Part shown: in pieces, positions 46,616-60,554 of the stretch | How positions within the stretch are numbered: position 1 is the first letter of the stretch | Layout: each line of letters begins with the position of its first letter | NCBI RefSeq assembly: GCF_900110855.1 | Contig: NZ_FOFA01000003.1 | Coordinates: 558,001 to 622,000, forward strand | DNA from: Microlunatus flavus | GTDB taxonomy: Bacteria; Actinomycetota; Actinomycetes; Propionibacteriales; Propionibacteriaceae | Direction of reading: 5' to 3' | Length of the DNA stretch: 64,000 bases | Position numbers and translations under genes: made by a program | The notes under the pieces: generated by a model | The model's input: the letters and a program-made list of their open reading frames with translations, nothing else | Database searches by the model: none | Told to the model about the DNA's origin: nothing

Positions 46616-46708
46616 CGTCGAGCCCCCCACTCGTCGGTCCTGCACCTGGGCAGGACGCTACGGACGGGGTCTGACAGTTCCGACGAGGTCGCGGAGCCCG
46701 CGACCGTT

Positions 46709-46742: not shown

Positions 46743-48032
46743 TCAGCGGGAGCTGGGCTGCAGCACCCCGGAGCTCTCCTGCGAGCCGAACCGTACGCCG
46801 CGGTTCTCGGGGCCGAGGGCGGTGAGGACGGCGACGGCGACCAGCACCGGGACGATCGTGACCGCCAGGGCGAAGGGGTAGCCGTGGGTGGAGGCGACGG
46901 CCTCCTGGATCGGCAGGTTGAAGGCGGCGAGGCAGTTGCCGAGCTGGTAGGTGACGCCGGGGTAGAAGCCGCGGATCTCGTCGGGCGACAGCTCGGTGAG
47001 GTGCGCGGGGATGACGCCCCAGGCGCCCTGCACGAAGAGCTGCATGACGAACGAGCCGAGCGCGAGCATGCCCGCGGTGTGCGAGTAGGCGAAGATCGGG
47101 ATCACGGGCAGGCCGAGGACCGCGCAGAAGACGATGATCCGGCGGCGGCCGAAGCGTTCGGAGAGGCCGCCGAAGACGAGCCCGCCGACGATCGCGCCGA
47201 TGTTGTAGACGATCGCGATGATCAGCGCGGTGTCGGCGGAGAGCCCGGCGCCGCCGTTGTCGGTGGCCTTGAGGAACGTCGGGTAGACGTCCTGGGTGCC
47301 GTGGCTCATCCAGTTGAAGGCGGTCATCAGCAGGATCAGGAAGACGAACCGCCGCACGACCGTCGGGTTGGTGAACACCTTCACGGCGGACACCTGCGTG
47401 GAGGTCTTGCGCTCCTTGGCGGCCTCCCAGACCTCGGACTCCTTGACGCGGCTGCGCACGATGAGGCTGATCAGCGCGGGCAGGACCGAGAAGGCGAACA
47501 GGTAGCGCCAGCCCAGCCCGAACGCCTGGTGCAGCACCAGGTAGACCGCCGCCGCGAGCAGGTAGCCGGTCGAGTAGCCCTCCTGCAGCAGCCCGGAGAA
47601 GAAGCCGCGGCGCTGCGCGGGGATCTTCTCCATCGCCAGCGCCGCCCCCAGCCCCCACTCGCCGCCCATGCCGATGCCGTACAGCAGGCGCAGCACGAGC
47701 AGGACGGTGAAGTTCGGGGCGAAGGCGCACGCGAAGCCGACCGCGCTGTAGAAGCAGACGTCGACGATCAGCGGGATGCGCCGGCCCACGCGGTCGGCCC
47801 ACAGGCCGAAGACCAGGGCACCGACCGGGCGCATCAGCAGCGTGACCGTGGTCAGGAACGCCATCCGCGTCAGCGAGACGCCGAACTCCTTCGCGATGTC
47901 GGCGTAGACGAGGACCACGATGAAGTAGTCGAAGGCGTCCATCGTCCAGCCGAGGAAGGCGGCGAGGAACGCGCTGCGCTGGTCACCGGTCAGGGGTACG
48001 CGGCCGGGCCGGCTGGTGGTGGACGCGCTCAC
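46743..48032 (-). CDS. MFS transporter of the metabolite:H+ symporter type
   Basis: 429 residues, 12 helices. [13 protein letters not shown] near residue 30, [13 protein letters not shown] in the 2-3 loop and [18 protein letters not shown] near 115-135 are typical of carboxylate/sialate/aromatic acid symporters (NanT/Jen1-like). Probably imports a carboxylate; the exact substrate is unknown. The GTG start has GGAAGGAG eight bases upstream. It is monocistronic with a clear terminator, and no catabolic genes flank it. Confidence 0.88.
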
Positions 48033-48118
48033 GGGGTCGCTCCTTCCTCGGACCCGGTACCGCTCCCGGGTCCGAGCAGGAACTTACGCCGCCTATGCGG
48101 GTGGGCGCCGCCGGGGCC

Positions 48119-49132
48119 TCAGGGCAGGAAGTAGAGGGCCAGCATGCCCAGCACCGTGAGGGCGACGAACGGCACGACGAGGAGCAGGTGGAGCCGCTTG
48201 TGCTCGACGACGACGGCCACGAACTCGCGCAGGAAGGCGCTCGGCACGTAGTAGCGCGCCGTCGGCGCCCCGACCACCTGGGTGTCGGTCCCGATCTGCC
48301 GGGCCAGGATCGCGGCCCGCAGGACGTGGTAGTTGTTCGTCACCGCGAGGGCCGGCCCGTCGCGGCCCGCGGCCTGCTGGACGCGGGCGGACAGCACGAG
48401 GTTCTCGCGGGTCGTGCGCGACTCGGTCTCGGGACGGACGTCCTCGGGCGGCACGCCGCGCGCGAGCAGGTAGTCGGCCATGGCCGCGCCCTCCGCACGG
48501 GTCTCGTCGTCGCCCTTGCCGCCGGAGGGGATGAGCAGCGGCGCCGTGCCGCTGGCCGCCTCGCGGCGGTAGATGGCCAGCGCCCGGTCGAGCCGGCTGG
48601 CCAGCAGGGGCGGCACCCGGCCGTCGATGATCCGCGAGCCGAGCACCACCAGGGCGGCCGGCCGTACGCCATGCTGCTGCACGCGGCCGTAGACGACCGA
48701 GTAGACGAGGAACACGACGAAGACCACCCCGGCGTAGCCGCTCAGCAGGAACAGCAGGGCCGCGGCCCCGATGCCGAGCGGGTTGCGCGTGAGGAAGAGC
48801 GCGACCCCGGCCACCGGCAGGAGGAGGAGGGCGACGCCGGCCGCGAGCGACAGCGACGTCCCGGGTGAGAGCCCCTCCGCCCGGATCACCGTGACCCCGT
48901 TGACGATCGCGAAGACGGCCAGCACCAGGACGGCGGCGGGGGCGAGCGCCACGAGGACGACGACCAGCACGGCGAACCCGGGGACCACCTCGGCGAGCAG
49001 GGAGACGGCGCCGACCAGCACGAACCACGCGGCGGCGACGAGGAAGACCCCGTTGCGCAGCAGGCGCCGGTCGCGGTTGCGGCTGACGACGTAGAGCACG
49101 CCGAAGACCGCTCCGATCACCAGGCTCGCCAC
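48119..49132 (-). CDS. YdcF/DUF218 family membrane protein
   Basis: 337 residues. Four N-terminal helices (about 1-140) precede a DUF218 (SanA/YdcF) domain: ALVVLGSRIIDGRVPP, LIPSGGKGDDETRAEG, ETESRTTRENLVLSA and AVTNNYHVLRAAILAR. A C-terminal helix ends the protein. DUF218 proteins are linked to envelope integrity, with no defined reaction. The GTG has no ribosome site; TACGGT at 49139-49144 stands six bases before it. Divergent from the vanZ-like gene. Confidence 0.88.
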   Translation of the reverse strand: MASLVIGAVFGVLYVVSRNRDRRLLRNGVFLVAAAWFVLVGAVSLLAEVVPGFAVLVVVLVALAPAAVLVLAVFAIVNGVTVIRAEGLSPGTSLSLAAGVALLLLPVAGVALFLTRNPLGIGAAALLFLLSGYAGVVFVVFLVYSVVYGRVQQHGVRPAALVVLGSRIIDGRVPPLLASRLDRALAIYRREAASGTAPLLIPSGGKGDDETRAEGAAMADYLLARGVPPEDVRPETESRTTRENLVLSARVQQAAGRDGPALAVTNNYHVLRAAILARQIGTDTQVVGAPTARYYVPSAFLREFVAVVVEHKRLHLLLVVPFVALTVLGMLALYFLP

Positions 49133-49138
49133 GGCGCC

Positions 49139-49144
49139 ACCGTA
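49139..49144 (-). promoter_or_regulatory. -10 box of the YdcF gene (leaderless mRNA)
   Basis: TACGGT six bases before the GTG at 49132 on the minus strand. Confidence 0.5.
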
Positions 49145-49178
49145 ACGTCCGGCGCACCAGGTCCCCCATCATGAGCGC

Positions 49179-49682
49179 GTGAGCCAGTTCGACCTGCCCC
49201 TGCGTGTGGCGCTGGTCGGGGGCCTCGCCCTCTTCGCCGTCCTCCTCGTGCCGGTGCTCGTCGTCCAGTACCGCCGCTACGGACGGCTGAGCCCGCGCCG
49301 CGTGCTGGCGGTGTCCGCCGTCTGCGTGTACGCGGTCGCGCTGGTGGCGTACACGTTCCTGCCGTTGCCCGGCGGCCAGGCCAACTGCGGGCCGTCGGGC
49401 GGTGCCCGGATCCAGCTGGTGCCGTTCCAGTTCCTGCGCGACATCGCCCGCGAGACGGCCGGTCTCGGCGTCGTGGGGACGCTCACCAGCACCGTCACCC
49501 TCCAGGTCGTGTTCAACGTGGCGCTGTTCGTGCCGTTCGGCCTGCTGGTGCGCCGGTTCGGCGGCCGCTCGCTGGTCATGACGACCGCGCTCGGGCTGCT
49601 CGCCTCGCTGGCGATCGAGTCCACCAAGGGCACCGCGCTGTGGGGGCTCTACGACTGCGCCTACCGCGTCGCTGACGGCTGA
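49179..49682 (+). CDS. VanZ-family membrane protein, truncated
   Basis: 167 residues with about four helices. NCGPSGGARIQLVPFQFLRDI, then FNVALFVPFGLLVRRFGGRS and the late WGLYDCAYRVADG match VanZ proteins. In intact relatives CAYR(V/I)FDVDD leads into a last membrane segment; here the frame stops right after CAYRVADG. VanZ proteins are linked to low-level glycopeptide or lipopeptide resistance but are widespread. The GTG may be leaderless (CATCAT six bases upstream). The rest of the domain seems to lie in another frame downstream. Confidence 0.75.
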   Translation: MSQFDLPLRVALVGGLALFAVLLVPVLVVQYRRYGRLSPRRVLAVSAVCVYAVALVAYTFLPLPGGQANCGPSGGARIQLVPFQFLRDIARETAGLGVVGTLTSTVTLQVVFNVALFVPFGLLVRRFGGRSLVMTTALGLLASLAIESTKGTALWGLYDCAYRVADG

Positions 49683-49684
49683 CG

Positions 49685-49972
49685 GGCTCGGGGGCCTCCG
49701 TCGGCCAGCGGCTCGTGTGGCTGCGGCCGACCTGGTCCGTCGAGCCCGGGCCGGGGCGCCGGCTCCTGCTCGGCTGGGTCGGCCCGGCGTGGGCCGCCGC
49801 GATCGCGCTGGTCGAGGTGGTCGACCCCGAAGGTCCGTCCCAGGTCCTCGCCCTGGTCCTCACCGTCCCGGGCCTGCTGTCACCGCTGGCGGTGCTGCTC
49901 ACCCGGGGGTCCCGGGGACTGTCGTTCGTGCTCGCCGGTGCCGGGCTCGCCGACGCCCGGGGCGAGGCCTGA
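49685..49972 (+). pseudogene. Out-of-frame C-terminal remnant of the VanZ-like gene
   Basis: Read from 49685 in a different frame, the sequence gives GSGASVGQRLVWLRPTW and then two membrane segments (GWVGPAWAAAIALVEVV and VLALVLTVPGLLSPLAVLL), ending at a TGA at 49970-49972. It looks like the missing last part of the VanZ-like protein, with loss of a short stretch around 49670-49685. A separate small membrane protein starting at the GTG at 49715 is the alternative, but it lacks a ribosome site. Confidence 0.45.
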
Positions 49973-49977
49973 GCGGT

Positions 49978-50970
49978 TCAGCCCGTGGCCAGCTCCGCGA
50001 TGCTCGACAGCGGGCGGACGGCCCGCCAGCCCAGGACGCGCTCCGCCGCCGAGCAGTCGGCGGTGATGTGGCGGACGTCGCCGAGGCGGAACTGGCCCGT
50101 GACGACCGGGGCCGGCCCGTGCAGCTCCTCGCTGAGGACCTCCGCCATGCGGCCGACGGTGGTGACGTCGGGCGAGCCGATGTTGAGCGGGGTGACACCC
50201 GGCGCGAGCCCGCCCGCCGACGCCGCCTCCAGCGCGGTGACCACCGCGGCGGCCACGTCGTCGACGTGGACGAAGTTGCGTCGCTGGCCACCGTCCTCGA
50301 ACACCCGCGGCGCCTCCCCGCGCGCGATCGCGCTCGCGAACAGCGAGGCGACGCCGGCGTACGGGGTGTTGCGCGGCATGCCGGGCCCGTAGACGTTGTG
50401 GAACCGCAGCGCCGCGACCGAGCCGCCGGTCTCGCGGGCCCACGCGGCAGCGAGGTACTCGCCCTGCGCCTTGGTCGCGGCGTAGACGTTCCGGGGGTCC
50501 ATGGCCGCGTCCTCGGGAACGAGCCCGGGAACGAGGTCGGCGCCGCAGCGCGGGCAGAGCGGGTCGAACCGTCCGGCCTCGAGGTCGGCGACCGCGCGCG
50601 GCGGCGGGCTGGTGGGGCCGTGCACCGGGCAGGCGTACGCGCCCTCGCCGTAGACGACCATCGACGACGCGTACGCGACCGGGCCGACGCCGAGGTTCGC
50701 CGCCGCCCGGAGCACGACGGCGGTGCCGACGTCGTTGGTGCGGACGTAGTCGTCGATGTCGTCGATGTCGAGGCCGAGCCCGACCTTGGCCGCCAGATGA
50801 GCGACGGCGTCGCAGCCGTCCATGACCTCCCGGACGCGCGGGAGGTCGGTGACGTCGTCGGCCGCGTCGAGCGCACGGTCGAGGACGACCGGCTCGTGGC
50901 CGAGCTCCTGCAGGCGCAGCACCACCCGGCGCCCGATGAACCCGGCGCCGCCGGTGACCAGCACCCTCAT
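49978..50970 (-). CDS. NAD-dependent nucleotide-sugar epimerase with a zinc-ribbon-like insert
   Basis: A 330-residue extended SDR. The Rossmann motif is VTGGAGFIGRRVV (5-17), the catalytic YAATK is near 168, and NFVHVDDVAAAVVTAL lies in the substrate domain. An insert with ACPVHG (near 125) and CPRCGADLVPG (near 150) looks like a four-Cys metal site, as in dTDP-L-rhamnose 4-epimerase-like proteins. It likely makes an activated sugar for the glycosyltransferases of the same operon. The ATG overlaps the methyltransferase stop (ATGA). Last gene of the leftward set. Confidence 0.85.
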   Translation of the reverse strand: MRVLVTGGAGFIGRRVVLRLQELGHEPVVLDRALDAADDVTDLPRVREVMDGCDAVAHLAAKVGLGLDIDDIDDYVRTNDVGTAVVLRAAANLGVGPVAYASSMVVYGEGAYACPVHGPTSPPPRAVADLEAGRFDPLCPRCGADLVPGLVPEDAAMDPRNVYAATKAQGEYLAAAWARETGGSVAALRFHNVYGPGMPRNTPYAGVASLFASAIARGEAPRVFEDGGQRRNFVHVDDVAAAVVTALEAASAGGLAPGVTPLNIGSPDVTTVGRMAEVLSEELHGPAPVVTGQFRLGDVRHITADCSAAERVLGWRAVRPLSSIAELATG

Positions 50971-51635
50971 GCCGCTGCCCCCGCGACCGGCGCCGGCCAG
51001 GAGTCGGCGTGCACCAGCTCGGCCTGCCAGCGGTTCTCGTCCTCGACCAGCCAGGTCTCCGCGACGCGTAGCCCGGCAGCCGCGGCGACCACGGCCAGGG
51101 CGTCGAGGCCGAGCACCGCCCAGGCGAACCAGGCCCCGGGCGCGCCCGCGCCGACAAGGCGCGCGGTCGTCACGCGCAGGCCGTGGCCGGGCGGGGCCAG
51201 GTCGACCAGGACCGTCCCGCCCGGGACGAGCAGCCGGCGGCACAGCCACAGCAGCCGTACGGGGTCGCCGCCGATCCCCACGTTGCCGTCGACGAGCAGG
51301 ACGTGGCGCCAGCGCTGGGCCCCGCGGTCGAGGGAGAAGACGTCGCGGTTGAGCGCGACGGCCCCGCGCGAGCGGGCCATGGCGACCGCGGACGGGGACA
51401 CGTCGACGCCGAGGGCGCGGACGCCGCGGCCCGACAGCGCCGCGGTCATCCGGCCCGGGCCGCAGCCGACGTCGAGCGTGGTCCCCCGGCAGCGGGAGAG
51501 CAGCCGCTGGTCGCCGGGACCCGCGTCGGCGGCCCACCGCGGGAGCGGGAGCTCCCACACGTCGCCCTCGGCGGTGTGCAGCTGGGCGCGGCCCTCGGCG
51601 AAGCCCGGCTCGAAGAACGCCTCCGGCTGGGTCAC
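50967..51635 (-). CDS. Class I SAM-dependent methyltransferase
   Basis: 222 residues. The SAM motif TLDVGCGPGRMT is near 50-61, followed by GVDVSPSAVAMARS; a later VPGGTVLVDLAPPGHG matches motif III. The N-terminal QLHTAEGDVWELPLPRW is characteristic of a group found beside DUF2064 glycosyltransferases. The substrate is not known; with this neighbourhood it may methylate a sugar, lipid carrier or quinone-like compound. The GTG overlaps the stop of the DUF2064 gene (GTGA). Confidence 0.85.
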   Translation of the reverse strand: MTQPEAFFEPGFAEGRAQLHTAEGDVWELPLPRWAADAGPGDQRLLSRCRGTTLDVGCGPGRMTAALSGRGVRALGVDVSPSAVAMARSRGAVALNRDVFSLDRGAQRWRHVLLVDGNVGIGGDPVRLLWLCRRLLVPGGTVLVDLAPPGHGLRVTTARLVGAGAPGAWFAWAVLGLDALAVVAAAAGLRVAETWLVEDENRWQAELVHADSWPAPVAGAAA

Positions 51636-52375
51636 GAGGCCACCGCCGGCCGCACGCCGAGCACGTCGGCGAGCGCGGCGAAGCGGCTGCCCGGGCAGGC
51701 GGCCGCGACGCGGTCGACGTCGGCCGGCACGTCGACGTCGGAGAGCACGGGTGCGGTCTCCACGAGCAGGCCGGCCGCCTCGAGGGCGGCGCGCGTCAGG
51801 CGTCCGGTCTGCGGCGTCGACATCGGGACGGCGGCCACCAGGCGGGCGTCGACGGCACGGCGCAGGGCCAGCAGCCACCAGCCGCCGTCGGCGGCCGGCC
51901 CGATCACCGCGTCCGGCCCGTCGGGTGCCACGACCCGCGCGGCGGCGGCGGCCAGCACCGCCGGGTCGGCCTGCGGGGTGTCCATGCCGACCTGCACCGT
52001 GGCGCCGGCGGGCCCGGCGGCGTCGAGGTGGGCGTGCGCGATCCGCTCGCCGAGGCCCTCGCCGCGCTGGGCCACCACCCGGAACGTCGACAGCCCGTCG
52101 GCCAGCGCCGCCGGCGCCGCGGCGAGGGCGAGGTCGCCGGTCAGGGCGCAGACGAGCCCGGGCGTCCCGGTCTCCCCCGCGGCGCCTCCCGCGTCCAGGC
52201 GGACCCCGGCCGCGCGGACCCCGTCGAGCGTGTCGAGCAGGGCGGCCCCGGCGAGCGCGGCGGCCTCGTGCGCGGAGTAGCCGCTCGTCAACCGGGTCTT
52301 CACCCGGCCGGGCACGGGGGCCTTGGCCAGGACGACGAAGGTCACCGTGGGCAGGGCTTCGGGCGGGGGCGTCAC
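51632..52375 (-). CDS. DUF2064/TIGR04282-type nucleotidyl/glycosyltransferase
   Basis: A 247-residue, GT-A-like protein: VVLAKAPVPGRVKTRLTSGY at the start, QVGMDTPQADPAVL in place of the DxD region, and GPAADGGWWLLALRR. The family is annotated as arsenosugar-type glycosyltransferase (TIGR04282), but arsenic genes are absent here, so that label is not supported. The GTG overlaps the GT2 stop (GTGA) and the stop overlaps the methyltransferase start, so all four leftward genes are tightly coupled. Confidence 0.85.
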   Translation of the reverse strand: MTPPPEALPTVTFVVLAKAPVPGRVKTRLTSGYSAHEAAALAGAALLDTLDGVRAAGVRLDAGGAAGETGTPGLVCALTGDLALAAAPAALADGLSTFRVVAQRGEGLGERIAHAHLDAAGPAGATVQVGMDTPQADPAVLAAAAARVVAPDGPDAVIGPAADGGWWLLALRRAVDARLVAAVPMSTPQTGRLTRAALEAAGLLVETAPVLSDVDVPADVDRVAAACPGSRFAALADVLGVRPAVAS

Positions 52376-53115
52376 GTGAGGGGGTTCGGAGTCGTCGCAC
52401 GGTCTGGATGAGCACCGTTCGGATGAGCGCGCGAGTGGTGGGGCGGAGCCGTCCGCCGGCCGCGGCGGCGCAGCAGGACGCGGGTGAAGTCCTGCAGGAC
52501 CCGCAGGGTCCCGCGCACCGAGCCGCTGACCTTCGAACGCCCGCCGAGGGTGCGGCGCCGGTAGGTGACGTCGACCTCGACCACCCGCCAGCCGGCCTGC
52601 GCGGCGGCGAGCACGGTCTCCAGCGGGTAGCCGAACCGTCGGTCCTCGACCCCGAGGTCGAGCAGCGCCTGGCGCTGGGCCACCCGTACGGGCGCGATGT
52701 CGTGCACCGCGACCCCGGTCGAGGAGCGGATCAGGGCGGCGAGCACCGCGTTCCCGGCGCGTGCGTGCCACGGCCACGACCGCGGCTCGACGACCCGGCG
52801 GCGCCCGACGACGAGGTCGGCCTCGCCGCGCGCGATCGTCGCCGCCGGCCCGACGAGCTCGGCCGGGTCCAGGGAACCGTCGCAGTCGATCACGGCGACC
52901 ACCTCGGTGGTGGCCGCCTCGATGCCGGTGTGCACCGGCGCGCCGTACCCGCGGCGCCCCTCGTGCACCACCCGGGCGCCGAGGCGTGCGGCCAGCGCGG
53001 CGCTGCCGTCGGTGGAGCCGTTGTCCACGACCAGGGCCTGCCAGCCCTCGGGGACGCGCGCCAGCACGCCCGGCAGGGCGAGGGCCTCGTCGAGGCACGG
53101 GAGGACCACGGTCAC
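52372..53115 (-). CDS. Glycosyltransferase family 2 (polyprenyl-phosphate glycosyltransferase-like)
   Basis: A 247-residue, GT-A family 2 enzyme. VTVVLPCLDEALALPGVL starts the fold; LVVDNGSTDGS and VAVIDCDGSLDP carry the donor-binding and metal Asp residues. The C-terminal TYRRRTLGGRSKVSGSV resembles dolichyl-phosphate-mannose/glucose synthases without the extra membrane helices. It may load a polyprenyl-phosphate sugar used by the divergent multispan protein. The start is uncertain: GTG at 53115 is given, but GGAGG (53161-53165) stands six bases before an in-frame ATC at 53154, which would add 13 residues. Confidence 0.83.
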   Translation of the reverse strand: MTVVLPCLDEALALPGVLARVPEGWQALVVDNGSTDGSAALAARLGARVVHEGRRGYGAPVHTGIEAATTEVVAVIDCDGSLDPAELVGPAATIARGEADLVVGRRRVVEPRSWPWHARAGNAVLAALIRSSTGVAVHDIAPVRVAQRQALLDLGVEDRRFGYPLETVLAAAQAGWRVVEVDVTYRRRTLGGRSKVSGSVRGTLRVLQDFTRVLLRRRGRRTAPPHHSRAHPNGAHPDRATTPNPLT

Positions 53116-53211
53116 GTTCGCCGCGCCGGCCGCAGGTGCGGGGTCGCCAAGGATGTCGGGCCTCCGGGGGTCTGGTCCGCGCGGACGACCGAGATCGGTC
53201 GCCCGCGACCG

Positions 53212-53221
53212 AATATAGGCT
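53212..53221. promoter_or_regulatory. Overlapping divergent -10 boxes of the glyco/molybdo gene sets
   Basis: On the minus strand TATATT (53212-53217) faces the GT2 operon; on the plus strand TAGGCT (53216-53221) stands six bases before the GTG at 53228. The two boxes share two bases, so both directions should compete for the same polymerase site. The AATATA sequence stands out as AT-rich in a very GC-rich setting. Confidence 0.6.
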
Positions 53222-53227
53222 GACGGC

Positions 53228-54616
53228 GTGGCGCGGACGGGGTCGGTGGTCCGGCGAGCCCTCCCGGCGGTCGTCACCGTCGTCGCCGCGCTGGTGCTGG
53301 TCCGCGTGTCGATGCTCGTCGGGCAGGACCTCAACGCCCGAGGGCTGCCGATCGTGCTGCCCTACCCGCCGCTGCTCGCCTTCTGGCACCCGCACGTCGG
53401 CGTCGGTACTCCGCTCACGGTGCTCTGCCTCGCCCTGGGGCTGCTCCTGCAGCGCCACGCCGCCCTGCTCCCCTGGCGCCGCCTGCTCGCCGCCGGCTGG
53501 CTGCTCGCCCTGGCCTGGATGGGTTCGCTCGTGATGATCGACGGGTTCGTCAAGGGTTGGACGAGCGTGCTGACCAACCCCAACGAGTACCTGCACGACC
53601 TCCCCCGCATCACCTCGCCGGCGGAGTTCCTGCGCACGTTCACGCACTTCATCGCCTTCGGCGGCGACGTGACCGGCGACAACGCCTGGACCACGCACGT
53701 GGCCGCCCACCCGCCGCTGGCCACGCTGGTCTTCTGGGCGCTGGCCGCGGTCGGCCTGCCCGGCGGCTTCTGGGCCGGGCTGCTCTGCGTCCTCGTCTCC
53801 TCGGCCGCGGCCGTCGGGCTCCCGGTCGCGCTGCGCGAGCTGGGCGCGCCCGACGCCGCCCGCCGGGTGGTGCCCTTCGCCGCGCTGATGCCCGGCGCGG
53901 TCTGGATGGCCGTCTCCGCCGACGGCCTGTTCACCGGCGTCGCGGTGGCCGGGCTCGCCCTCGCCTGCCGCGGCGCGAGCCCCGACGCCGGACGTGGGCG
54001 CCTCGGCTCGAGCCTGGCCGGCGGGGTCCTGCTCGGCGCGGCGGTCTTCCTGAACTACGGCCTCGTGCTCTTCGGGCTCGTGGTGCTGGCCGCGGTCGCG
54101 GTCGGCGCGCACCGCGTCGGCCTACGGGCGGTGCTCCGCTCCTGGCTGGTGAGCGCGGCCGGCGTCGCGCTGGTCGCGGCCGCGCACGTCGCGCTGGGCT
54201 TCGACTGGTTCGTCGGGCTGGCCCGGCTGCGGGTGCGCTACTACCAGCAGACGGCGTCGGACCGGCCGTACTCCTACTTCGTGTGGGCCAACCTGGCCGC
54301 CTGGCTCGTCGCCTGGTCCCCCCTGCTCGCGTACGGGGTGGTGCGCGGCGTCGGCGTCCTGCTCCGCACCCGACGCGACGGCTGGACGCAGGGCACCGTC
54401 GTCGCACTTCTCGCGACGGCCGGGACGGCGGCGGCCCTGGCGGCCGACGTCTCGGGGATGTCCAAGGCCGAGACCGAGCGGATCTGGCTGCCGTTCGGGG
54501 CCGTCGCGTACGCCGGCCTCGCCCTGGTGCGGCGCCGCTGGACGTCGGCGCTGGCGCTGGTGCTGACCGCGGGCTGGGCGGCCATGGTGAACTCGTTGCT
54601 GGACACCGGCTGGTAG
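53228..54616 (+). CDS. Multispan GT-C-like glycosyltransferase
   Basis: 462 residues with about 12 membrane helices. An early periplasmic loop has DGFVKGWTSVLTNPNEYLHDL and a DNAWTTHVAAHPPL segment with conserved acidic and His residues, typical of GT-C enzymes using polyprenyl-phosphate sugars. The RVRYYQQTASDRPYSYFVWA segment is near residue 335. No soluble domain. It likely glycosylates an extracytoplasmic acceptor with a sugar supplied by the divergent GT2 set; this is inference. Leaderless GTG start. The cytochrome gene begins 12 bases downstream. Confidence 0.75.
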   Translation: MARTGSVVRRALPAVVTVVAALVLVRVSMLVGQDLNARGLPIVLPYPPLLAFWHPHVGVGTPLTVLCLALGLLLQRHAALLPWRRLLAAGWLLALAWMGSLVMIDGFVKGWTSVLTNPNEYLHDLPRITSPAEFLRTFTHFIAFGGDVTGDNAWTTHVAAHPPLATLVFWALAAVGLPGGFWAGLLCVLVSSAAAVGLPVALRELGAPDAARRVVPFAALMPGAVWMAVSADGLFTGVAVAGLALACRGASPDAGRGRLGSSLAGGVLLGAAVFLNYGLVLFGLVVLAAVAVGAHRVGLRAVLRSWLVSAAGVALVAAAHVALGFDWFVGLARLRVRYYQQTASDRPYSYFVWANLAAWLVAWSPLLAYGVVRGVGVLLRTRRDGWTQGTVVALLATAGTAAALAADVSGMSKAETERIWLPFGAVAYAGLALVRRRWTSALALVLTAGWAAMVNSLLDTGW

Positions 54617-54628
54617 GGGCGGGAGCGG

Positions 54629-55204
54629 ATGGCGACGAGGCTCGGCAGGCTCGACACGCAGGTGCTGGAGGAGCAGGCGGAACGGCTCCAGGAGTCGCTC
54701 GCGACGCCGGCGCGCTCGGCACGGACGGCGGTGGTGCTCGGCCGGCTGCTCGGCGTCGGTTTCGTCGTGTGCTTCGCCACGGGGATGTACAGCCACTTCC
54801 TGCAGGACCCGTACCCCTGGATGAGGTTCCCGACCCGGCCGGCGGGGCTCTACCGGTTCACGCAGGGGCTGCACGTCGTCACCGGGATCGCCTGCATCCC
54901 GCTGCTGCTGGCCAAGCTCTGGACCGTCTACCCCAAGCTCTTCGCCTTCCCGCCCTTCTCCTCGGTGCGGCAGCTGCTCGAGCGGCTCTCGGTGGCCGTC
55001 CTCGTGGCGTCCGCCCTGCTGCAGGTCGGGATGGGCCTGCTGAACACCTACCAGTGGTACCCGTGGGCGCCGTGGTTCGCGTTCCGCGACGTGCACCACG
55101 CGCTGGCGTGGGTCGCCATCGGGTCCGTCGCGCTGCACGTCGCCGTCCAGCTGCCGACCATCGCGCGGCACTGGCGCCGCGGAGCCCCCGACGAGGGCCT
55201 GTGA
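54629..55204 (+). CDS. Cytochrome b561-like membrane subunit
   Basis: 191 residues with four membrane helices. His residues sit in GMYSHFLQD, TQGLHVVTG, DVHHALAW and SVALHVAVQLP, placed to hold one or two b-type hemes across the membrane. Such proteins are the membrane electron partner of molybdopterin oxidoreductases (YedZ-like role), and the next gene encodes one. The stop overlaps that gene's start (GTGA). A soluble N-terminal helix with LEEQAERLQESLATPARS precedes the first span. GGGAGCGG precedes the ATG. Confidence 0.85.
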   Translation: MATRLGRLDTQVLEEQAERLQESLATPARSARTAVVLGRLLGVGFVVCFATGMYSHFLQDPYPWMRFPTRPAGLYRFTQGLHVVTGIACIPLLLAKLWTVYPKLFAFPPFSSVRQLLERLSVAVLVASALLQVGMGLLNTYQWYPWAPWFAFRDVHHALAWVAIGSVALHVAVQLPTIARHWRRGAPDEGL

Positions 55205-55809
55205 GCACCGACCCCGACCGCACCAGCCGCCGCGGCTTCTTCGTGACGGTCGGCGCCGCCACGGCCGGGCTCACCGTCGTCACCGCCGGCCAGAGCGTCG
55301 CCTGGCTGTCGGGGACCAACCTCTTCGCGCCGCGCGAGCCGCGCCAGGGTCCGCAGTCGCTCGCGGTCAACCGGACGGCGGCGGCGGCCGGCGTCGAGGC
55401 GCTGGCGACCGACCCCGGCTGGCGGCTCACCGTCACCGGGGCGCGGACCGTACGCCTGGGTCGCGACGAGCTGCTCGCGCTGCCGCAGACGTCCGTCACC
55501 CTGCCGATCGCGTGCGTCGAGGGCTGGAGCACGTCGGCCGACTGGGCCGGCGTCCGGGTCCGGGACCTGCTCGCCCTCGTCGACGGCGACCGCGGGGCCC
55601 CGGTGCGGTGCACCAGCCTCGAGCCGCAGGGCGTCTACCGCACCAGCGACATGGGGCGGGAGTTCGCGCAGGACGACCGCACGCTGGTCGCGCTGCGGCT
55701 GAACGGCGAGGACCTCGACCTGGACCACGGCTTCCCGGCCCGCCTGATCGCCCCCGCCCGGCCCGGGGTGCGGCAGACCAAGTGGCTGACGTCGGTCGAG
55801 GCGGTATGA
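55201..55809 (+). CDS. Molybdopterin-dependent oxidoreductase (sulfite oxidase/YedY-like), Tat-exported
   Basis: 202 residues. A Tat signal with TSRRGFFVTVGAATAGLTVV is near the start. The Moco-binding domain of the sulfite-oxidase fold follows, with the molybdenum Cys in PIACVEGWSTSADWAGV (near 104), SLEPQGVYRTSDM and DHGFPARLIAPARPGVRQTKW. There is no dimerisation domain, as in YedY/MsrP, but the protein is shorter. It should reduce or oxidise a periplasmic substrate, with electrons through the cytochrome b partner. It is coupled at both ends (GTGA and ATGA overlaps). Confidence 0.9.
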   Translation: MSTDPDRTSRRGFFVTVGAATAGLTVVTAGQSVAWLSGTNLFAPREPRQGPQSLAVNRTAAAAGVEALATDPGWRLTVTGARTVRLGRDELLALPQTSVTLPIACVEGWSTSADWAGVRVRDLLALVDGDRGAPVRCTSLEPQGVYRTSDMGREFAQDDRTLVALRLNGEDLDLDHGFPARLIAPARPGVRQTKWLTSVEAV

Positions 55810-56234
55810 GGCGGGCGCGGCTGGTCCTCGGCGGCGTCGGCGTGGCGGTGCTGCTGTACGGGGTGTGGACACTGGCCGACGCGGTGCTGCCCGCCTCGTA
55901 CGCGTGGCTCGTCGTGTGGCTGCTCGGTGCGGTCGTGCTCCACGACCTGGTGGTCGCGCCGGTCCTGGTCGGCCTGCGGTGGGTCGCGCACCGCGTCCTC
56001 GGGGCGCTTCCCCCGGCGGCGCTGGCCGTCCTGCTCGGCGCCGGCCTGCTGTGCGGGCTGCTCGTGCTCGTCGTCGCGCCGATGCTCTGGGCCCAGCACC
56101 TCGGCCCCGCCAACCCGACCGTGCTGCCGGGGGCGTACGGCCTGCGGCTGGTGGTCTCGGTCCTCGTCCTCGCCCTGGTCGGCGCGCTGCCGGCCGTCGT
56201 CGTGGTGCGCGGCGCGCGACGTCGGCGGCACTAG
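55806..56234 (+). CDS. Small membrane protein of unknown function
   Basis: 142 residues with four hydrophobic helices and short Arg-rich ends (MRRAR at the start, RGARRRRH at the end). I do not recognise the family and see no catalytic motif. The ATG overlaps the oxidoreductase stop (ATGA), so it belongs to the same operon and may help assemble or anchor the oxidoreductase/cytochrome unit. That is inferred from position only. Confidence 0.7.
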   Translation: MRRARLVLGGVGVAVLLYGVWTLADAVLPASYAWLVVWLLGAVVLHDLVVAPVLVGLRWVAHRVLGALPPAALAVLLGAGLLCGLLVLVVAPMLWAQHLGPANPTVLPGAYGLRLVVSVLVLALVGALPAVVVVRGARRRRH

Positions 56235-56237
56235 CCT
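56232..56237 (+). promoter_or_regulatory. -10 box of the YihY gene (leaderless mRNA)
   Basis: TAGCCT seven bases before the GTG at 56245, with its first two bases inside the stop codon region of the upstream gene. Confidence 0.45.
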
Positions 56238-56244
56238 TCACCCC

Positions 56245-57198
56245 GTGAGCGCGAGCCCGAGGTCGACGGCCCGCGCCCGCCCGTGGCGCGCCCGCCTGAC
56301 CGGCACCCGCGGGTGGCAGGCGGCCAAGGAGACGCTGGTCGCCTGCTTCCGCTACCGCGTGACGGGGCTCGCCGCGGAGGCCGCCTTCTTCACCGTCCTG
56401 TCGCTGCCGCCGCTGATCTTCGGCCTCGCCGGCCTCATCGGCTTCGTCGCGAGCGCCTTCGACGTCGGCGAGGTGGCGAGCTTCCAGAAGCAGGTGCTCC
56501 TCGTCGCCGGCCGCGTGCTCACCACCGACGTCGTCGACGGGATCCTCGCCCCGACGCTGCAGACCGTGCTGAGCCAGGGCAGCGCGGCGGTGGTGTCGAT
56601 CGGCTTCCTGGTCGCGCTGTGGTCGGGCTCCCGCGCGGTCAACGTCTTCGTCGACACCATCACGATCATGTACGGGCTCGCCGGCCGGCGCGGCTTCGTG
56701 CAACAGCGGCTGCTGTCCTTCGTCTTCTACCTCGTCCTCATGGTCATCAGCGTGGTCCTCGTGCCGCTCGTGCTCGCTGGACCGTCCCTAGTCAACCGCG
56801 TGCTGCCCGCACGCCTGGAGTTCCTGGGCGCGCTCTACTGGCCGGTCGTCCTGCTGGTCGGCGGGCTCTTCCTGGCAGGCGTCTACAACCGGTCGATCCC
56901 GCTGCGCAGCCGGTGGCGCAGCGGCCTGCCGGGCGCCGCGCTGTCGCTGCTCATCTGGGTGCTGGGCAGCGTGCTGCTGCGCGTCGTGCTCGGCGCCTCC
57001 TCCGGCTCGACCACCATCTACGGCCCGCTCTCCGCCCCGATCGCCGTCCTGATCTGGCTGTACGTGATGTCCCTCGCCGTGCTCGTGGGTGCCGCGTTCA
57101 ACGCCGCCGCCGACGACGTCTGGCCGCGGCTGACCGGGATCGACCACCGCGAGGAGGACCGTGATGTCCAGAGTGCGGACACGCGTCCCGAGATCTGA
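56245..57198 (+). CDS. YihY/BrkB family membrane protein
   Basis: 317 residues with about six helices: KETLVACFRYRVTGLAAEAAF at the start, LWSGSRAVNVFVDTITIMYG, then a central pair, and YGPLSAPIAVLIWLYVMSLAVL near the C-terminus, the usual YihY/virulence factor BrkB layout. The old link to RNase BN is not accepted; the role is unknown, and transport has been suggested. The acidic tail DHREEDRDVQSADT is cytosolic. It ends 242 bases before the sulfite reductase; an inverted repeat covers its stop codon. Confidence 0.88.
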   Translation: MSASPRSTARARPWRARLTGTRGWQAAKETLVACFRYRVTGLAAEAAFFTVLSLPPLIFGLAGLIGFVASAFDVGEVASFQKQVLLVAGRVLTTDVVDGILAPTLQTVLSQGSAAVVSIGFLVALWSGSRAVNVFVDTITIMYGLAGRRGFVQQRLLSFVFYLVLMVISVVLVPLVLAGPSLVNRVLPARLEFLGALYWPVVLLVGGLFLAGVYNRSIPLRSRWRSGLPGAALSLLIWVLGSVLLRVVLGASSGSTTIYGPLSAPIAVLIWLYVMSLAVLVGAAFNAAADDVWPRLTGIDHREEDRDVQSADTRPEI

Positions 57199-57207
57199 GA
57201 TTCAGAT
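57193..57207. promoter_or_regulatory. Inverted repeat ATCTGA-N3-TCAGAT upstream of the sulfur operon
   Basis: A perfect 6-bp dyad around GAT, with the YihY stop codon in its left arm. It is AT-rich compared with the surroundings and could be an operator for the sulfur operon; no known binding consensus was matched. Confidence 0.35.
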
Positions 57208-57256
57208 TTGATCGACGGCAGCGCGCGCCGGATCGTGTGAGGGTGCGTGCCGACCG

Positions 57257-57304
57257 AGGGACCAGCCAGCCGCTGGTCCCTGCCGGCTTGACCCGGCGTC
57301 GGGT
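57257..57304 (+). promoter_or_regulatory. Structured leader of the sulfate-assimilation operon
   Basis: AGGGACCAG and CTGGTCCCT (57257-57265 with 57273-57281) form a perfect 9-bp stem with a 7-base loop. Right after it are two overlapping, mutually exclusive hairpins: GCCGG/CCGGC (57282-57297) and ACCCG/CGGGT (57291-57304). About 136 bases then lead to the sulfite reductase start. The layout suits an RNA switch or protein-bound leader; the sequence does not match SAM-I or SAM-IV consensus as I know them. Confidence 0.45.
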
Positions 57305-57440
57305 CGTGGACCTCGGCCGCACCGGTTCGATGATGTGTCGGCCGTGGATGACGCCCGGGCACTGACGCCCCGCTCGACCACCCGACCCCCCTTCCCCGAC
57401 GTCCGGCGCGACGCCGCGGGCTGCAGTGAAGAAGGAACCG

Positions 57441-59132
57441 ATGACCGGCGAGAACCCCACCCCGACCGTCACGCGTACACCCCGCCCGCGCAAGCCCCGC
57501 GGCGAGGGCCAGTGGGCGCTCGGCTACCGGGAGCCGCTGAACCCGAACGAGCAGTCCAAGAAGGACGACAACCCGCTCAACGTCCGGGCGCGCATCGAGA
57601 ACATCTACGCCCACGGCGGCTTCGCCTCGATCGACCCGGGCGACCTGCGCGGACGGTTCCGCTGGTACGGCCTCTACACCCAGCGCAAGCCCGGCATCGA
57701 CGGCGGCAAGACCGCCACGCTCGAGCCGCACGAGCTCGACGACGAGTACTTCATGCTCCGCGTCCGCATCGACGGCGGCGCACTGACCAGTGAGCAGCTG
57801 CGCGTCATCGGCCAGATCTCGGTGGACTTCGCCCGCGGGACCGCCGACATCACCGACCGCCAGAACGTCCAGCTGCACTGGATCCGCATCGAGGACGTCC
57901 CCGAGATCTGGCGTCGCCTCGAGGCGGTCGGCCTCGACACGACCGAGGCCTGCGGCGACTGCCCGCGCGTCGTCCTCGGCTCGCCGGTGGCCGGCATCGC
58001 CGCCGACGAGATCATCGACCCGACGCCCGCGATCCGCGAGATCCGCGACCGCTTCATCGGCGACCCGCAGTACGCGAACCTGCCGCGCAAGTTCAAGACC
58101 GCGATCACCGGCCACCCGCTGCAGGACGTGGTGCCGGAGATCAACGACATCGCCTTCGTCGGCGTCGAGCACCCCGAGCACGGGCCGGGCTTCGACGTCT
58201 GGGTCGGCGGGGGCCTGTCGACGAACCCGATGCTGGCGCAGCGCCTCGGCGCCTGGGTTCCCCGCGAGGAGGTCGCCGAGGTGTGGGCCGGCGTGTGCGG
58301 CGTGTTCCGCGACTACGGCTACCGCCGCCTGCGCACGCGCGCCCGCATCAAGTTCCTCGTCGCCGACTGGGGTCCGGAGAAGTTCCGCGAGGTGCTCGAG
58401 AACGAGTACCTGCACCGCCCCATGCTCGACGGCCCGGCGCCCGCCACGCCCGAGCGGCCCGGGGACCACGTCGGCGTCAACGAGCAGAAGGACGGCACGT
58501 TCTTCGTCGGGCTGGCCGCGAAGGCCGGCCGGGTCGACGGCGCCCGCCTGGTGGCCCTGGCCGACCTCGCCGAGGCGCACGGCTCGTCGCGGCTGCGGAC
58601 GACGCCGATGCAGAAGATCCTCGTGCTCGACGTCGCGGCCGACCAGGTCGACTCCCTCGTCGCCGGCGCCGAGGCGCTGGACCTGTCCGCCCGCCCCGAC
58701 GCCTGGCGGCGCTCGGTCATGGCGTGCACGGGCATCGAGTTCTGCAAGCTGGCGATCGTCGAGACCAAGGCTCAGGCCGCGCGCCTCGTCGACGAGCTCG
58801 ACAGCCGCCTCGGGGCGATGGAGTCGCCCATCACCGTGCACCTGAACGGCTGCCCCAACTCCTGCGCCCGCATCCAGACCGCCGACATCGGGCTCAAGGG
58901 CCAGCTGGTCCCCGGGCCCGCCGGCGACCAGGTCGAGGGCTTCCAGGTCCACCTGGGCGGCGGCCTCGGCATGGACGCCGGGTTCGGCCGCAAGCTGCGC
59001 GGCCACAAGGTCACCGCGGCCGAGCTGCCCGACTACGTCGAGCGCCTCGCGAAGTCCTTCACCGCCGAGCGCCACGAGGGCGAGCGGTTCGCGCAGTGGG
59101 TCGCGCGCGCGGACGAGTCGGTGCTGGTGTGA
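57441..59132 (+). CDS. sirA: Assimilatory sulfite reductase (ferredoxin), siroheme and 4Fe-4S
   Basis: A 563-residue nitrite/sulfite reductase. The FeS/siroheme ligands are CTGIEFC (near 429-435) and GCPNSC (near 470-474), with RQNVQLHWIRIEDVP in the ferrodoxin-like half and GEGQWALGYREPLNPNEQSK at the N-terminus. It reduces sulfite to sulfide with six electrons from ferredoxin. The ATG at 57441 is chosen because GAAGGA lies just upstream; the GTG at 57426 is possible. It heads the sulfate-assimilation operon, and a CbiX-like gene for siroheme is in the same operon. The stop overlaps the next start. Confidence 0.95.
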   Translation: MTGENPTPTVTRTPRPRKPRGEGQWALGYREPLNPNEQSKKDDNPLNVRARIENIYAHGGFASIDPGDLRGRFRWYGLYTQRKPGIDGGKTATLEPHELDDEYFMLRVRIDGGALTSEQLRVIGQISVDFARGTADITDRQNVQLHWIRIEDVPEIWRRLEAVGLDTTEACGDCPRVVLGSPVAGIAADEIIDPTPAIREIRDRFIGDPQYANLPRKFKTAITGHPLQDVVPEINDIAFVGVEHPEHGPGFDVWVGGGLSTNPMLAQRLGAWVPREEVAEVWAGVCGVFRDYGYRRLRTRARIKFLVADWGPEKFREVLENEYLHRPMLDGPAPATPERPGDHVGVNEQKDGTFFVGLAAKAGRVDGARLVALADLAEAHGSSRLRTTPMQKILVLDVAADQVDSLVAGAEALDLSARPDAWRRSVMACTGIEFCKLAIVETKAQAARLVDELDSRLGAMESPITVHLNGCPNSCARIQTADIGLKGQLVPGPAGDQVEGFQVHLGGGLGMDAGFGRKLRGHKVTAAELPDYVERLAKSFTAERHEGERFAQWVARADESVLV

Positions 59133-59317
59133 GCGACTCCACCCCGGTACCGCACGCCCCCCGCGCCGAGCGGCAGTCGATCAACTACTGCCCGTACTGC
59201 TCGGAGGAGACGCTCTTCCCGCTCGAGGGCGGCGGCTGGGAATGCCGCTCGTGCCGCCGGGCGTTCGCCGTGACGTTCAAGGGGCTCGTCGCCCCTGGTC
59301 ACGGAGGTGTTGCATGA
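59129..59317 (+). CDS. Small zinc-ribbon protein of the sulfur operon
   Basis: A 62-residue protein with two CxxC pairs: NYCPYCSEETLFP and WECRSCRRAFAVTF, a single zinc ribbon or small FeS knuckle. I recognise it as a regular companion of sulfite reductase and cysH in actinobacteria, often mislabelled as an insertion-element protein; no function is proven. It is coupled at both ends (GTGA with sirA, ATGA with cysH). It may be an electron or sulfur carrier, or a zinc-dependent partner. Too short for a transposase. Confidence 0.82.
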   Translation: MSDSTPVPHAPRAERQSINYCPYCSEETLFPLEGGGWECRSCRRAFAVTFKGLVAPGHGGVA

Positions 59318-60003
59318 GCACGATGCTCGACCTGTCCGACCTGGCCGCGGAGGCCAGCCGCGAGCTCGAGGACGCCACGGCGCTCGAGATCATGGCGTGG
59401 GCCCACGAGCAGTTCGGCCGCGAGCTCGTCGTCACGTCGTCGCTGGCGGACACCGTGATGATCAGCCTCGCCGAGCGCGTGGCGCCCGGCATCGACGTGG
59501 TCTTCCTCGACACCGGCTACCACTTCGTCGAGACGATCGGCACGCGTGACGCCGTCAAGCTCGTCCACGACGTCAACCTCATCAGCGTCACCCCGGAGCT
59601 CAGCGTCGCCGAGCAGGACGCGGCGTACGGCAAGGACCTGTTCCGGACCAACCCGGACGCGTGCTGCGGCATGCGCAAGGTCGCGCCGCTCGGCCGGGCG
59701 CTGGAACCGTACGCGGCCTGGGCCTCGGGCGTGCGCCGCGCCGACTCCCCCGCCCGCGCGAACACCCCCGTCGTGGCCTGGGACGCGCGCCGCCACCTGG
59801 TCAAGGTCTCCCCCATCGCCCGCTGGACGGACGAGGACGTGACGGCCTACGTCGAGGAGAACTCGCTGATGCTCAACCCGCTGCTCGAGGACGGCTACCC
59901 GTCCATCGGCTGCGAGCCGTGCACCGTGCGCGCCACCGGTTCCGACGCACGCGCCGGGCGCTGGGCCGGGCTGGGCAAGACCGAGTGCGGGATCCACCTG
60001 TGA
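59314..60003 (+). CDS. cysH: Phosphoadenylyl/adenylyl-sulfate reductase
   Basis: 229 residues. The PP-loop-like start VVTSSLADTVMISLAE binds the nucleotide. A paired CC (near 116, in DACCGMRK) and CEPC (near 199) give the four Cys of the 4Fe-4S cluster of APS reductases, and the C-terminal ECGIHL carries the catalytic Cys. It therefore probably uses APS as substrate, although cysC is also present. GGAGG precedes the ATG. The stop shares one base with the cysC start (TGATG). Confidence 0.94.
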   Translation: MSTMLDLSDLAAEASRELEDATALEIMAWAHEQFGRELVVTSSLADTVMISLAERVAPGIDVVFLDTGYHFVETIGTRDAVKLVHDVNLISVTPELSVAEQDAAYGKDLFRTNPDACCGMRKVAPLGRALEPYAAWASGVRRADSPARANTPVVAWDARRHLVKVSPIARWTDEDVTAYVEENSLMLNPLLEDGYPSIGCEPCTVRATGSDARAGRWAGLGKTECGIHL

Positions 60004-60554
60004 TGGGTGGCACTGTGTGGTTCACCGGTCTCCCCAGCGCCGGCAAGTCCACCGTCTCCCACGCGCTCGCCGAGCGGCTGCGGGCCGAGGGCGTCGACGT
60101 GGAGGTGCTCGACGGCGACGAGGTGCGCCCGCACCTGTCCGCCGGGCTCGGGTTCACCCGCGCCGACCGCGACGTGAACGTGCGCCGCATCGGCTGGGTC
60201 GCCCGCCTGCTCGCCTCCCACGGCACCGTCGTGCTCGTGCCCGTCATCGCGCCGTACGCCGAGGCCCGCCAGGCCGTCCGTGACGACCACGCCGCGCACG
60301 GCGTGGCCTTCGGCGAGGTGTTCGTGTCGACCTCGCTCGAGGTCGCCGAGCAGCGCGACGTCAAGGGGCTCTACGCCCGGGCCCGCCGCGGCGAGATCAG
60401 CGGCATGACCGGCGTCGACGACCCGTACGAGCAGCCCGCCACGGCGGAGCTCGAGCTCGACACCGCCGCGCTCGACCTCGGCACCTCGGTGGACCGGGCG
60501 TACGCGCTGCTCCACCAGATCCTCGCCCGTCCCCTCGAGAGGACCTCCGCGTGA
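60003..60554 (+). CDS. cysC: Adenylylsulfate kinase
   Basis: 183 residues. Walker A GLPSAGKST is at 9-17, then DGDEVRPHLSAGLGFTRADRD (17 of these residues form the usual APS-binding motif), and GLYARARRGEISGMTGVDDPYE near 125-145. It phosphorylates APS to PAPS. As the next step (cysH) has APS-reductase cysteines, PAPS may be needed for sulfonation rather than for sulfite production. It is coupled to cysH and cysD. Confidence 0.95.
   Translation: MGGTVWFTGLPSAGKSTVSHALAERLRAEGVDVEVLDGDEVRPHLSAGLGFTRADRDVNVRRIGWVARLLASHGTVVLVPVIAPYAEARQAVRDDHAAHGVAFGEVFVSTSLEVAEQRDVKGLYARARRGEISGMTGVDDPYEQPATAELELDTAALDLGTSVDRAYALLHQILARPLERTSA

What the first reader, a model, noticed from the sequence alone, without database searches (positions are those of the whole stretch)
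49978..56234. Candidate undescribed system: divergent glycan-synthesis and molybdo-oxidoreductase gene sets
Seen: GT2, DUF2064 transferase, methyltransferase and sugar epimerase run left with 4-base overlaps; a multispan GT-C-like protein, cytochrome b561-like subunit, Tat molybdopterin oxidoreductase and a small membrane protein run right, also overlapping. The two sets share one promoter region. Known: DPM-type GT2 enzymes load polyprenyl phosphates and GT-C enzymes use them outside; YedY-like enzymes work with a heme partner. Inference: an exported glycosylated, methylated compound is made and then oxidised or reduced at the cell surface.
Basis: partly seen in the sequence, partly recalled or inferred. 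Interest (0 to 1): 0.72.

Follow-up and report, generated by a model that had tools for sequence, protein, structure and literature searches.

The report
Sulfur-sugar surface locus with redox enzyme
The eight neighbouring genes look like a soil-bacterium relative of the tuberculosis locus that puts an unusual methylthio sugar on the cell surface, joined to a membrane molybdenum-heme enzyme that may act on that sugar's sulfur atom; the chemistry is inferred, not shown.

Summary
In detail: GT2-DUF2064-methyltransferase-epimerase leftward, GT-C-cytochrome-molybdoenzyme-membrane protein rightward. They form one conserved cluster in Actinomycetia: of 67 uncut GT-C neighbourhoods, 48 hold GT2+DUF2064 and the molybdoenzyme, 15 one side only, 4 neither. 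It is not wholly undescribed. GT2, DUF2064, GT-C and epimerase match the methylthioxylose (MTX) locus of mycobacteria (MtxS/MtxT) as seen in Mycobacterium szulgai. Cytochrome and molybdoenzyme, split here, are one protein in 57 of 57 named loci: the Sco3746 type, Sec/Tat-assembled. In 197 sampled genomes that protein occurs in 77, 76 of them with the cluster-type DUF2064. Best reading: an MTX-like sugar is made, loaded on polyprenyl phosphate and transferred outside, and the heme-molybdenum enzyme, of a fold that moves oxygen to or from sulfur, reduces or oxidises its thioether. Against: the window's genome shows no methylthioadenosine phosphorylase, and 13 of 16 loci fetched from near relatives carry the heme-molybdenum pair without GT2/DUF2064. 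New variant of a known kind.

The parts
49978..50970 (-). NAD-dependent sugar epimerase (SDR) with a Cys-rich insert (CPxHG ... CPxCG); GalE3-like, proposed ribo-to-xylo epimerase
   Evidence: Pfam Epimerase E 3.5e-43; the same insert read by eye in the M. szulgai homologue; in 61 of 67 uncut named loci
50967..51635 (-). class I SAM methyltransferase (target unknown)
   Evidence: Methyltransf_25 E 1.6e-9; in 56 of 67 uncut loci; in one reading frame with DUF2064 in L031, L134, L135, L190, L192
51632..52375 (-). DUF2064 / TIGR04282-like nucleotidyltransferase, proposed NDP-sugar synthesis
   Evidence: PF09837 E 2.2e-21; profile hits 3cgx putative NDP-sugar transferase E 1.6e-28 and CofC guanylyltransferase E 8.3e-4
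52372..53151 (-). GT2 polyprenyl-phosphate sugar synthase, MtxS-like
   Evidence: Glycos_transf_2 E 1.2e-17; AglJ and dolichyl-phosphate transferase best in NCBIfam, under cut-off; best PDB profile hit dolichol-phosphate mannose synthase E 6.5e-14
53152..53227 (.). 76-base divergent intergenic region
   Evidence: no sigma-70 consensus match
53228..54616 (+). GT-C-type glycosyltransferase, MtxT-like, 10 predicted spans
   Evidence: no Pfam family of its own; PMT_2 weakly in 2 of 21 relatives; relative in the M. szulgai MTX-type locus
54629..55204 (+). four-span cytochrome b561-like subunit (N-terminal half of the Sco3746 type)
   Evidence: Ni_hydr_CYTB E 9.9e-6, under cut-off; the three invariant His kept
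55201..55809 (+). Tat-anchored sulfite-oxidase-fold molybdopterin domain (C-terminal half of the Sco3746 type)
   Evidence: Oxidored_molyb E 9.5e-24; MsrP best NCBIfam match, under cut-off; RR and invariant Cys kept
55806..56234 (+). small four-span membrane protein of the redox module, role unknown
   Evidence: profile matches beside the molybdoenzyme; 53 of 67 uncut loci; three invariant residues in 21 sequences

Best explanation
An MTX-type surface-sugar locus with an attached sulfur-redox module. Proposed steps: (1) a 5-deoxy-5-methylthio-ribose 1-phosphate, in most relatives from 5'-methylthioadenosine by a phosphorylase; (2) DUF2064 activates it to a nucleotide sugar; (3) the SDR epimerase turns ribo into xylo; (4) the GT2 moves it to polyprenyl phosphate; (5) the GT-C enzyme transfers it outside to a cell-envelope glycan; (6) the cytochrome b/Moco pair (one protein elsewhere) exchanges electrons with the quinone pool and moves an oxygen atom at the sugar's sulfur, more likely sulfoxide to thioether, as MsrPQ does on methionine sulfoxide. 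The methyltransferase adds a further methyl at an unknown place. Shown here: gene content, conservation, co-occurrence, and the match to the mycobacterial locus. Steps 4-5 are reported for M. tuberculosis proteins by others. Steps 1-3 and 6 in this organism are inferred.
For: M. szulgai locus: menE-like gene, GT-C, DUF2064, GT2, epimerase, methylthioadenosine phosphorylase, the order I recall for Rv0542c-Rv0535; MtxS=Rv0539 and MtxT=Rv0541c by literature; MTX starts from methylthioadenosine (PMC11127046). All nine families together in M. neoaurum and M. kandeliicorticis. 48 of 67 uncut loci hold GT2+DUF2064+molybdoenzyme. 77 of 197 genomes have the heme-Moco protein, 76 of them the cluster-type DUF2064; 108 have neither. 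15 of 16 heme-Moco loci fetched from genomes without a GT-C hit still lie beside GT2 and DUF2064. Phosphorylase in 72 of 88 DUF2064-positive against 29 of 109 negative genomes. [quoted passage not shown] The MTX sulfoxide (MSX) is reported in all four LAM samples studied (PMC8531672).
Against: Own genome: no MTA phosphorylase at E 1e-25, no MTA nucleosidase at E 1e-10, one PF01048 protein, which is a purine nucleoside phosphorylase by equivalog score; 16 of 88 DUF2064-positive genomes lack the phosphorylase. The heme-Moco+membrane pair lies without GT2/DUF2064 in 13 of 16 loci fetched from the relatives set (two on contigs under 12 kb), seven of them in five 8-Mb genomes of the order; whether the genomes without a known pathway locus hold it elsewhere is untested. 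Of four fetched loci from genomes whose GT-C lies elsewhere, three have no GT2/DUF2064. The closest relative, G003, keeps the redox pair 0.63 Mb from its GT2 locus if its chromosome is circular. The methyltransferase has no role in the MTX route. Co-occurrence tests ignore phylogeny, and the GT-C tree largely follows taxonomy, so inheritance inflates them. No structure or substrate evidence.
Confidence: 0.55

Rival explanations
1. Same machine, different sugar: the cluster makes and exports another pentofuranose or deoxy-sugar here, not methylthio; GT2, DUF2064, epimerase and GT-C are MTX-locus homologues with changed substrate.
For: No MTA phosphorylase or nucleosidase found in the window's genome; 16 of 88 DUF2064-positive genomes lack the phosphorylase; a methyltransferase is present that MTX synthesis does not need.
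Against: The same gene set with the phosphorylase inside the cluster occurs in M. kandeliicorticis and M. neoaurum, and the phosphorylase lies beside the epimerase in G018 of the same genus; a sulfur-acting Mo-enzyme fits a sulfur sugar.
Confidence: 0.25
2. The cytochrome-molybdoenzyme pair is a general MsrPQ-like methionine sulfoxide reductase (or sulfite dehydrogenase) that is only a frequent neighbour of the sugar genes.
For: MsrP is its best NCBIfam match, then SoxC, SorA, SorT, all under cut-off; 13 of 16 loci fetched from the relatives set carry it without GT2/DUF2064; sulfite reductase, PAPS reductase and APS kinase genes lie just downstream in this window.
Against: In 197 sampled genomes it is found without DUF2064 only once, in a 72%-complete genome; the sulfite reductase neighbour occurs in 0 of 140 other fetched loci.
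Confidence: 0.17
3. The two directions are chance neighbours.
For: In G003, the closest relative, the redox genes lie far from the GT2/GT-C locus.
Against: Both sides together in 48 of 67 uncut loci, under 20 different genus-level names; order and strand change while the genes stay adjacent.
Confidence: 0.02

Closest known systems
Mycobacterial methylthioxylose (MTX) cap locus, MtxS (Rv0539) / MtxT (Rv0541c), with the neighbouring DUF2064, GalE3-like and MTA phosphorylase genes (gene numbers of these neighbours recalled)
   Same: GT2, DUF2064, GT-C and epimerase with the same Cys-rich insert; MTA phosphorylase in the same cluster in 15 of 67 uncut named loci
   Different: Adds a methyltransferase, a heme-Moco pair and a small membrane protein; occurs in bacteria for which the searches made here found no report of MTX; no phosphorylase found in the window's genome; acceptor glycan unknown
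Sco3746-type heme-molybdenum membrane protein (PMC5449189)
   Same: Four spans with three conserved heme His, twin arginine before a fifth span, C-terminal Moco domain; S. violaceoruber L120 matches 4 of the 5 residues published for Sco3746 topology with an 8-residue shift and has no Cys in the membrane part
   Different: Here split into two overlapping genes between span 4 and span 5
MsrPQ (YedYZ) periplasmic methionine sulfoxide reductase
   Same: SUOX-fold Tat-exported Mo subunit working with a heme b membrane subunit
   Different: Cytochrome is b561-like with 4 predicted spans, usually fused; lies with sugar genes; MsrP and Sor scores are below the family cut-offs

Membership tests
MTX biosynthesis/transfer locus (MtxS/MtxT type) | GT2 polyprenyl-phosphate sugar synthase and GT-C transferase encoded together with DUF2064 and a GalE3-like epimerase | tested here: met
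MTX biosynthesis/transfer locus (MtxS/MtxT type) | MTA phosphorylase supplying methylthioribose 1-phosphate | tested here: not met
   none at E <= 1e-25 in the window's genome; its one PF01048 protein is a purine nucleoside phosphorylase; present in 72 of 88 DUF2064-positive genomes
MTX biosynthesis/transfer locus (MtxS/MtxT type) | Product is methylthioxylose on a lipoglycan | not testable with these tools
   needs chemistry
Sco3746 heme-Moco family | Conserved TM histidines, twin arginine before a Tat-dependent span, Moco domain with conserved Cys | tested here: met
   in two polypeptides rather than one
Sco3746 heme-Moco family | Single polypeptide | tested here: not met
   split in the window, G003, G015, G018; fused in 57 of 57 named loci
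MsrP (NF003767) | Score over curated cut-off (207 bits) | tested here: not met
   34.1 bits
Sulfite dehydrogenase (SorA/SorT/SoxC) | Score over curated cut-off | tested here: not met
   22.8-32 bits against 420-600
TIGR04282 arsenosugar-type DUF2064 | Score over curated cut-off (134 bits) | tested here: not met
   109.9 bits
GT-C superfamily | Solved-structure or Pfam GT-C relationship | tested here: inconclusive
   no PDB profile hit up to E 1; PMT_2 in 2 of 21 members, best E 0.0031; structure prediction switched off

The most novel reading that the evidence does not exclude
A regulated redox switch on a surface sugar: a widespread actinobacterial methylthio-sugar cap whose sulfur is cycled between thioether and sulfoxide by a quinone-linked heme-molybdenum enzyme, with a dedicated two-component system in many genomes, so that the MTX/MSX pair known from tuberculosis LAM would be one branch of a general system and the sulfoxide an enzyme-controlled state rather than damage.
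Probability: 0.2. Interest if true: 0.85.

Novelty: new variant of a known kind. Interest (0 to 1): 0.6.

Why it matters
A 2024 paper states that it is unclear whether MTX modification exists outside lipoarabinomannan assembly (PMC11127046, passage). This neighbourhood predicts that it does, in Streptomyces, Amycolatopsis, Rhodococcus, Micromonospora, Gordonia and Microlunatus-type bacteria, and it proposes a substrate class for the Sco3746 heme-molybdenum protein, whose Sec/Tat assembly was studied but for which the passages seen give no function. MTX in lipoarabinomannan is also the target of a tuberculosis immunoassay (PMC6258851, listing only), so its natural spread would matter for specificity. 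Both claims can be tested in laboratory strains such as S. coelicolor.

Tried and rejected
Arsenosugar pathway (from the TIGR04282 name): rejected, the score is under the cut-off; I did not search for a radical-SAM partner. Sulfite oxidation linked to the sulfite reductase gene downstream: that neighbour is in 0 of 140 other loci. MTA nucleosidase as a substitute source: not found in the window's genome. Rfam: nothing in 48000-58000. A residue test against Sco3746 with all five published positions found no offset in the four Streptomyces proteins tried; dropping the N-terminal position gave a match in 3 of 6 Streptomyces proteins including L120, so that agreement was found after relaxing the test and is not specific to one strain. 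A careful GT-C tree did not finish; the quick tree was used. Structure prediction could not be run.
Full report
OBSERVATION. GT2, DUF2064, methyltransferase and epimerase run left with three 4-base overlaps; GT-C, cytochrome, molybdoenzyme and small membrane protein run right, with two 4-base overlaps among the last three and a 12-base gap after the GT-C gene. The molybdoenzyme starts at 55201 (GTG).

CONSERVATION. The GT-C protein has relatives in 22 of 116 near genomes, its own counted, and by profile in 147 of 394 genomes of the class. I fetched the neighbourhoods of 20 of the 21 other genomes of the first set (G070 left out): GT2, DUF2064 and methyltransferase lie within about 10 kb in 19 of 20, cytochrome and molybdoenzyme in 17 of 20, epimerase in 18 of 20. 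In the 67 of these whose neighbourhood is not cut by a contig end (13 dropped): GT2 61, DUF2064 61, epimerase 61, methyltransferase 56, small membrane protein 53, cytochrome 50, molybdoenzyme 51 (50 if the weak 59-bit match in L122 is dropped), methylthioadenosine (MTA) phosphorylase 15. With the strict threshold, GT2+DUF2064 and molybdoenzyme together: 48; one side only: 15; neither: 4. The order and strands are shuffled: GT2 and GT-C are head to head within 800 bases in 33 of 61, the molybdoenzyme shares the DUF2064 strand in 30 of 48 and the GT-C strand in 5 of 50. So the two directions in this window do not mark two functions.

WHAT THE GLYCAN HALF IS. In Mycobacterium szulgai (L105) the locus reads, with flanking genes named by eye, menE-like gene, GT-C, an amino-acid-permease-like gene, DUF2064, GT2, a proline/threonine-rich protein, a membrane protein, epimerase, MTA phosphorylase (the phosphorylase over the NCBIfam equivalog cut-off). 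From memory, without the permease, this is the order of Rv0542c-Rv0535 of M. tuberculosis. The literature held says that MtxT (Rv0541c) transfers methylthioxylose (MTX) to the mannose caps of lipoarabinomannan and MtxS (Rv0539) forms MTX-P-C50 (PMC8780516, passages), and that the route starts from 5'-methylthioadenosine (PMC11127046, passages). The original paper, Angala et al. 2017, is not held and was not read. The profiles point the same way: dolichol-phosphate mannose synthase is the best PDB hit of the GT2, chondroitin synthase next; nucleotidyltransferase-type proteins are the best of DUF2064. The GT-C gene tree (quick method) puts M. szulgai in a Mycobacteriaceae group (support 100) with M. 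neoaurum, whose cluster holds all nine families, and largely follows taxonomy. MTA phosphorylase is present in 72 of 88 DUF2064-positive and 29 of 109 DUF2064-negative genomes (Fisher p 6e-15, phylogeny ignored).

WHAT THE REDOX HALF IS. Cytochrome and molybdoenzyme are one reading frame in 57 of 57 strong matches in named loci and separate in the window, G003, G015 and G018; G215 also looks split and G187, G200 and G249 match in two pieces. The fused protein has three invariant membrane His, an invariant twin arginine before a last span, and an invariant Cys in LPIxCVEGWS, in 20 aligned sequences; the split window proteins keep all of them. This is the architecture of Sco3746, a predicted heme-molybdenum protein with five spans whose assembly needs Sec and Tat, with three conserved and one variable His (PMC5449189, passages). 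S. violaceoruber L120 matches four of the five published Sco3746 positions, as do L057 and L111 of six Streptomyces proteins tried (after the five-position test had failed). Its gene order, two-component pair, GT2, DUF2064, methyltransferase, membrane protein, heme-Moco, GT-C, fits published tables in which SCO3740/SCO3741 is a kinase/regulator pair and SCO3744 a putative methyltransferase (PMC9739842 and PMC6135851, passages). So S. coelicolor SCO3740-SCO3747 is probably this cluster; the individual numbers are inferred.

LINK BETWEEN THE HALVES. In 197 class genomes the heme-Moco profile gives 83 strong hits, halves of split genes counted once, in 77 genomes; the cluster-type DUF2064 (E <= 1e-15) is in 88; both in 76; heme-Moco alone in one (G129, 72% complete); neither in 108 (Fisher p 2e-40, phylogeny ignored). 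66 of 83 hits lie within 15 kb of DUF2064, 38 of 83 within 12 kb of a GT-C hit, 21 in genomes whose GT-C hit lies elsewhere, 24 in genomes without one. Of the 24, I fetched 16 loci holding 17: 15 of 16 have GT2 and DUF2064 beside the heme-Moco gene; the other (L136) ends at a contig end. Of the 21, I fetched four: one (L145) has GT2 and DUF2064, three (L146-L148) do not. In two mycobacterium-type genomes the methyltransferase, heme-Moco and membrane genes form a module of their own (L146, L148) while the GT-C/DUF2064/GT2/epimerase/phosphorylase locus is elsewhere (L150, L152). M. szulgai has one strong match to the fused protein, on another contig.

EVIDENCE AGAINST. A later search of the 116 relatives found heme-Moco proteins in 47 genomes. 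I fetched 16 loci, chosen among hits away from a GT-C hit: three (L190, L192, L202) have GT2 and DUF2064 nearby; 13 do not, two of them on contigs under 12 kb. Seven are from five 8-Mb genomes of the order; in five of these (L197-L201) the pair sits among shared neighbour genes not of this pathway, and L195 has the methyltransferase. G003 and G005 hold the pathway at another locus; for the others this could not be tested. In the window's genome there is no MTA phosphorylase, no MTA nucleosidase, and one PF01048 protein, a purine nucleoside phosphorylase, so the source of a methylthio sugar here is not shown. The methyltransferase is not explained by the MTX route; it occurs with the phosphorylase (L049, L084), so it is not a simple substitute for it.

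MECHANISM. SUOX-fold enzymes move an oxygen atom to or from sulfur (general knowledge); [quoted passage not shown] A sugar pathway whose special feature is a thioether, beside a surface enzyme of this fold, suggests that the thioether or its sulfoxide is the substrate. The sulfoxide form, MSX, is reported in lipoarabinomannan of all four strains studied (PMC8531672, passages). From recalled midpoint potentials (menaquinone about -0.07 V, sulfoxide/thioether about +0.16 V) reduction is the easier direction. Direction and substrate are inference.

NOVELTY. I saw no report of MTX outside mycobacteria, or of this gene set as a system, (listings, cut to 40 of 170, 10 of 74 and 40 of 82, plus the passages cited); the held library lacks most subscription journals. 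The glycan half is homologous to a known locus and the redox protein to a described one; their union, spread and proposed chemistry appear new.

Noticed in passing
L049-L128 (47 of 80 loci), e.g. L062:10241-11991, L120:3207-4984: A closely related OmpR-type two-component pair (the kinase seems to have only a short membrane sensor part) sits in the neighbourhood in 47 of 80 named loci; no pair was found in the window.
   Followed up: partly
window 57426-60554: Sulfite reductase, PAPS reductase and APS kinase genes follow the locus after a BrkB-family gene; the sulfite reductase neighbour is in 0 of 140 other fetched loci.
   Followed up: partly
L031:13165-14511; L134; L135; L190; L192: DUF2064 and the methyltransferase lie in one reading frame (fusion) in several genomes, which ties the methyltransferase to the sugar pathway.
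   Followed up: no
L195-L201: In 8-Mb genomes of the same order the heme-Moco+membrane pair stands without the sugar genes; G069 has three copies.
   Followed up: partly
L107 (Rhodococcus rhodnii): Its GT-C groups with Kibdelosporangium (branch lengths 0.025 and 0.026) among Pseudonocardiaceae, so the record may be mislabelled or the locus transferred.
   Followed up: no
window 45161-46645: DUF222/HNH endonuclease gene.
   Followed up: no
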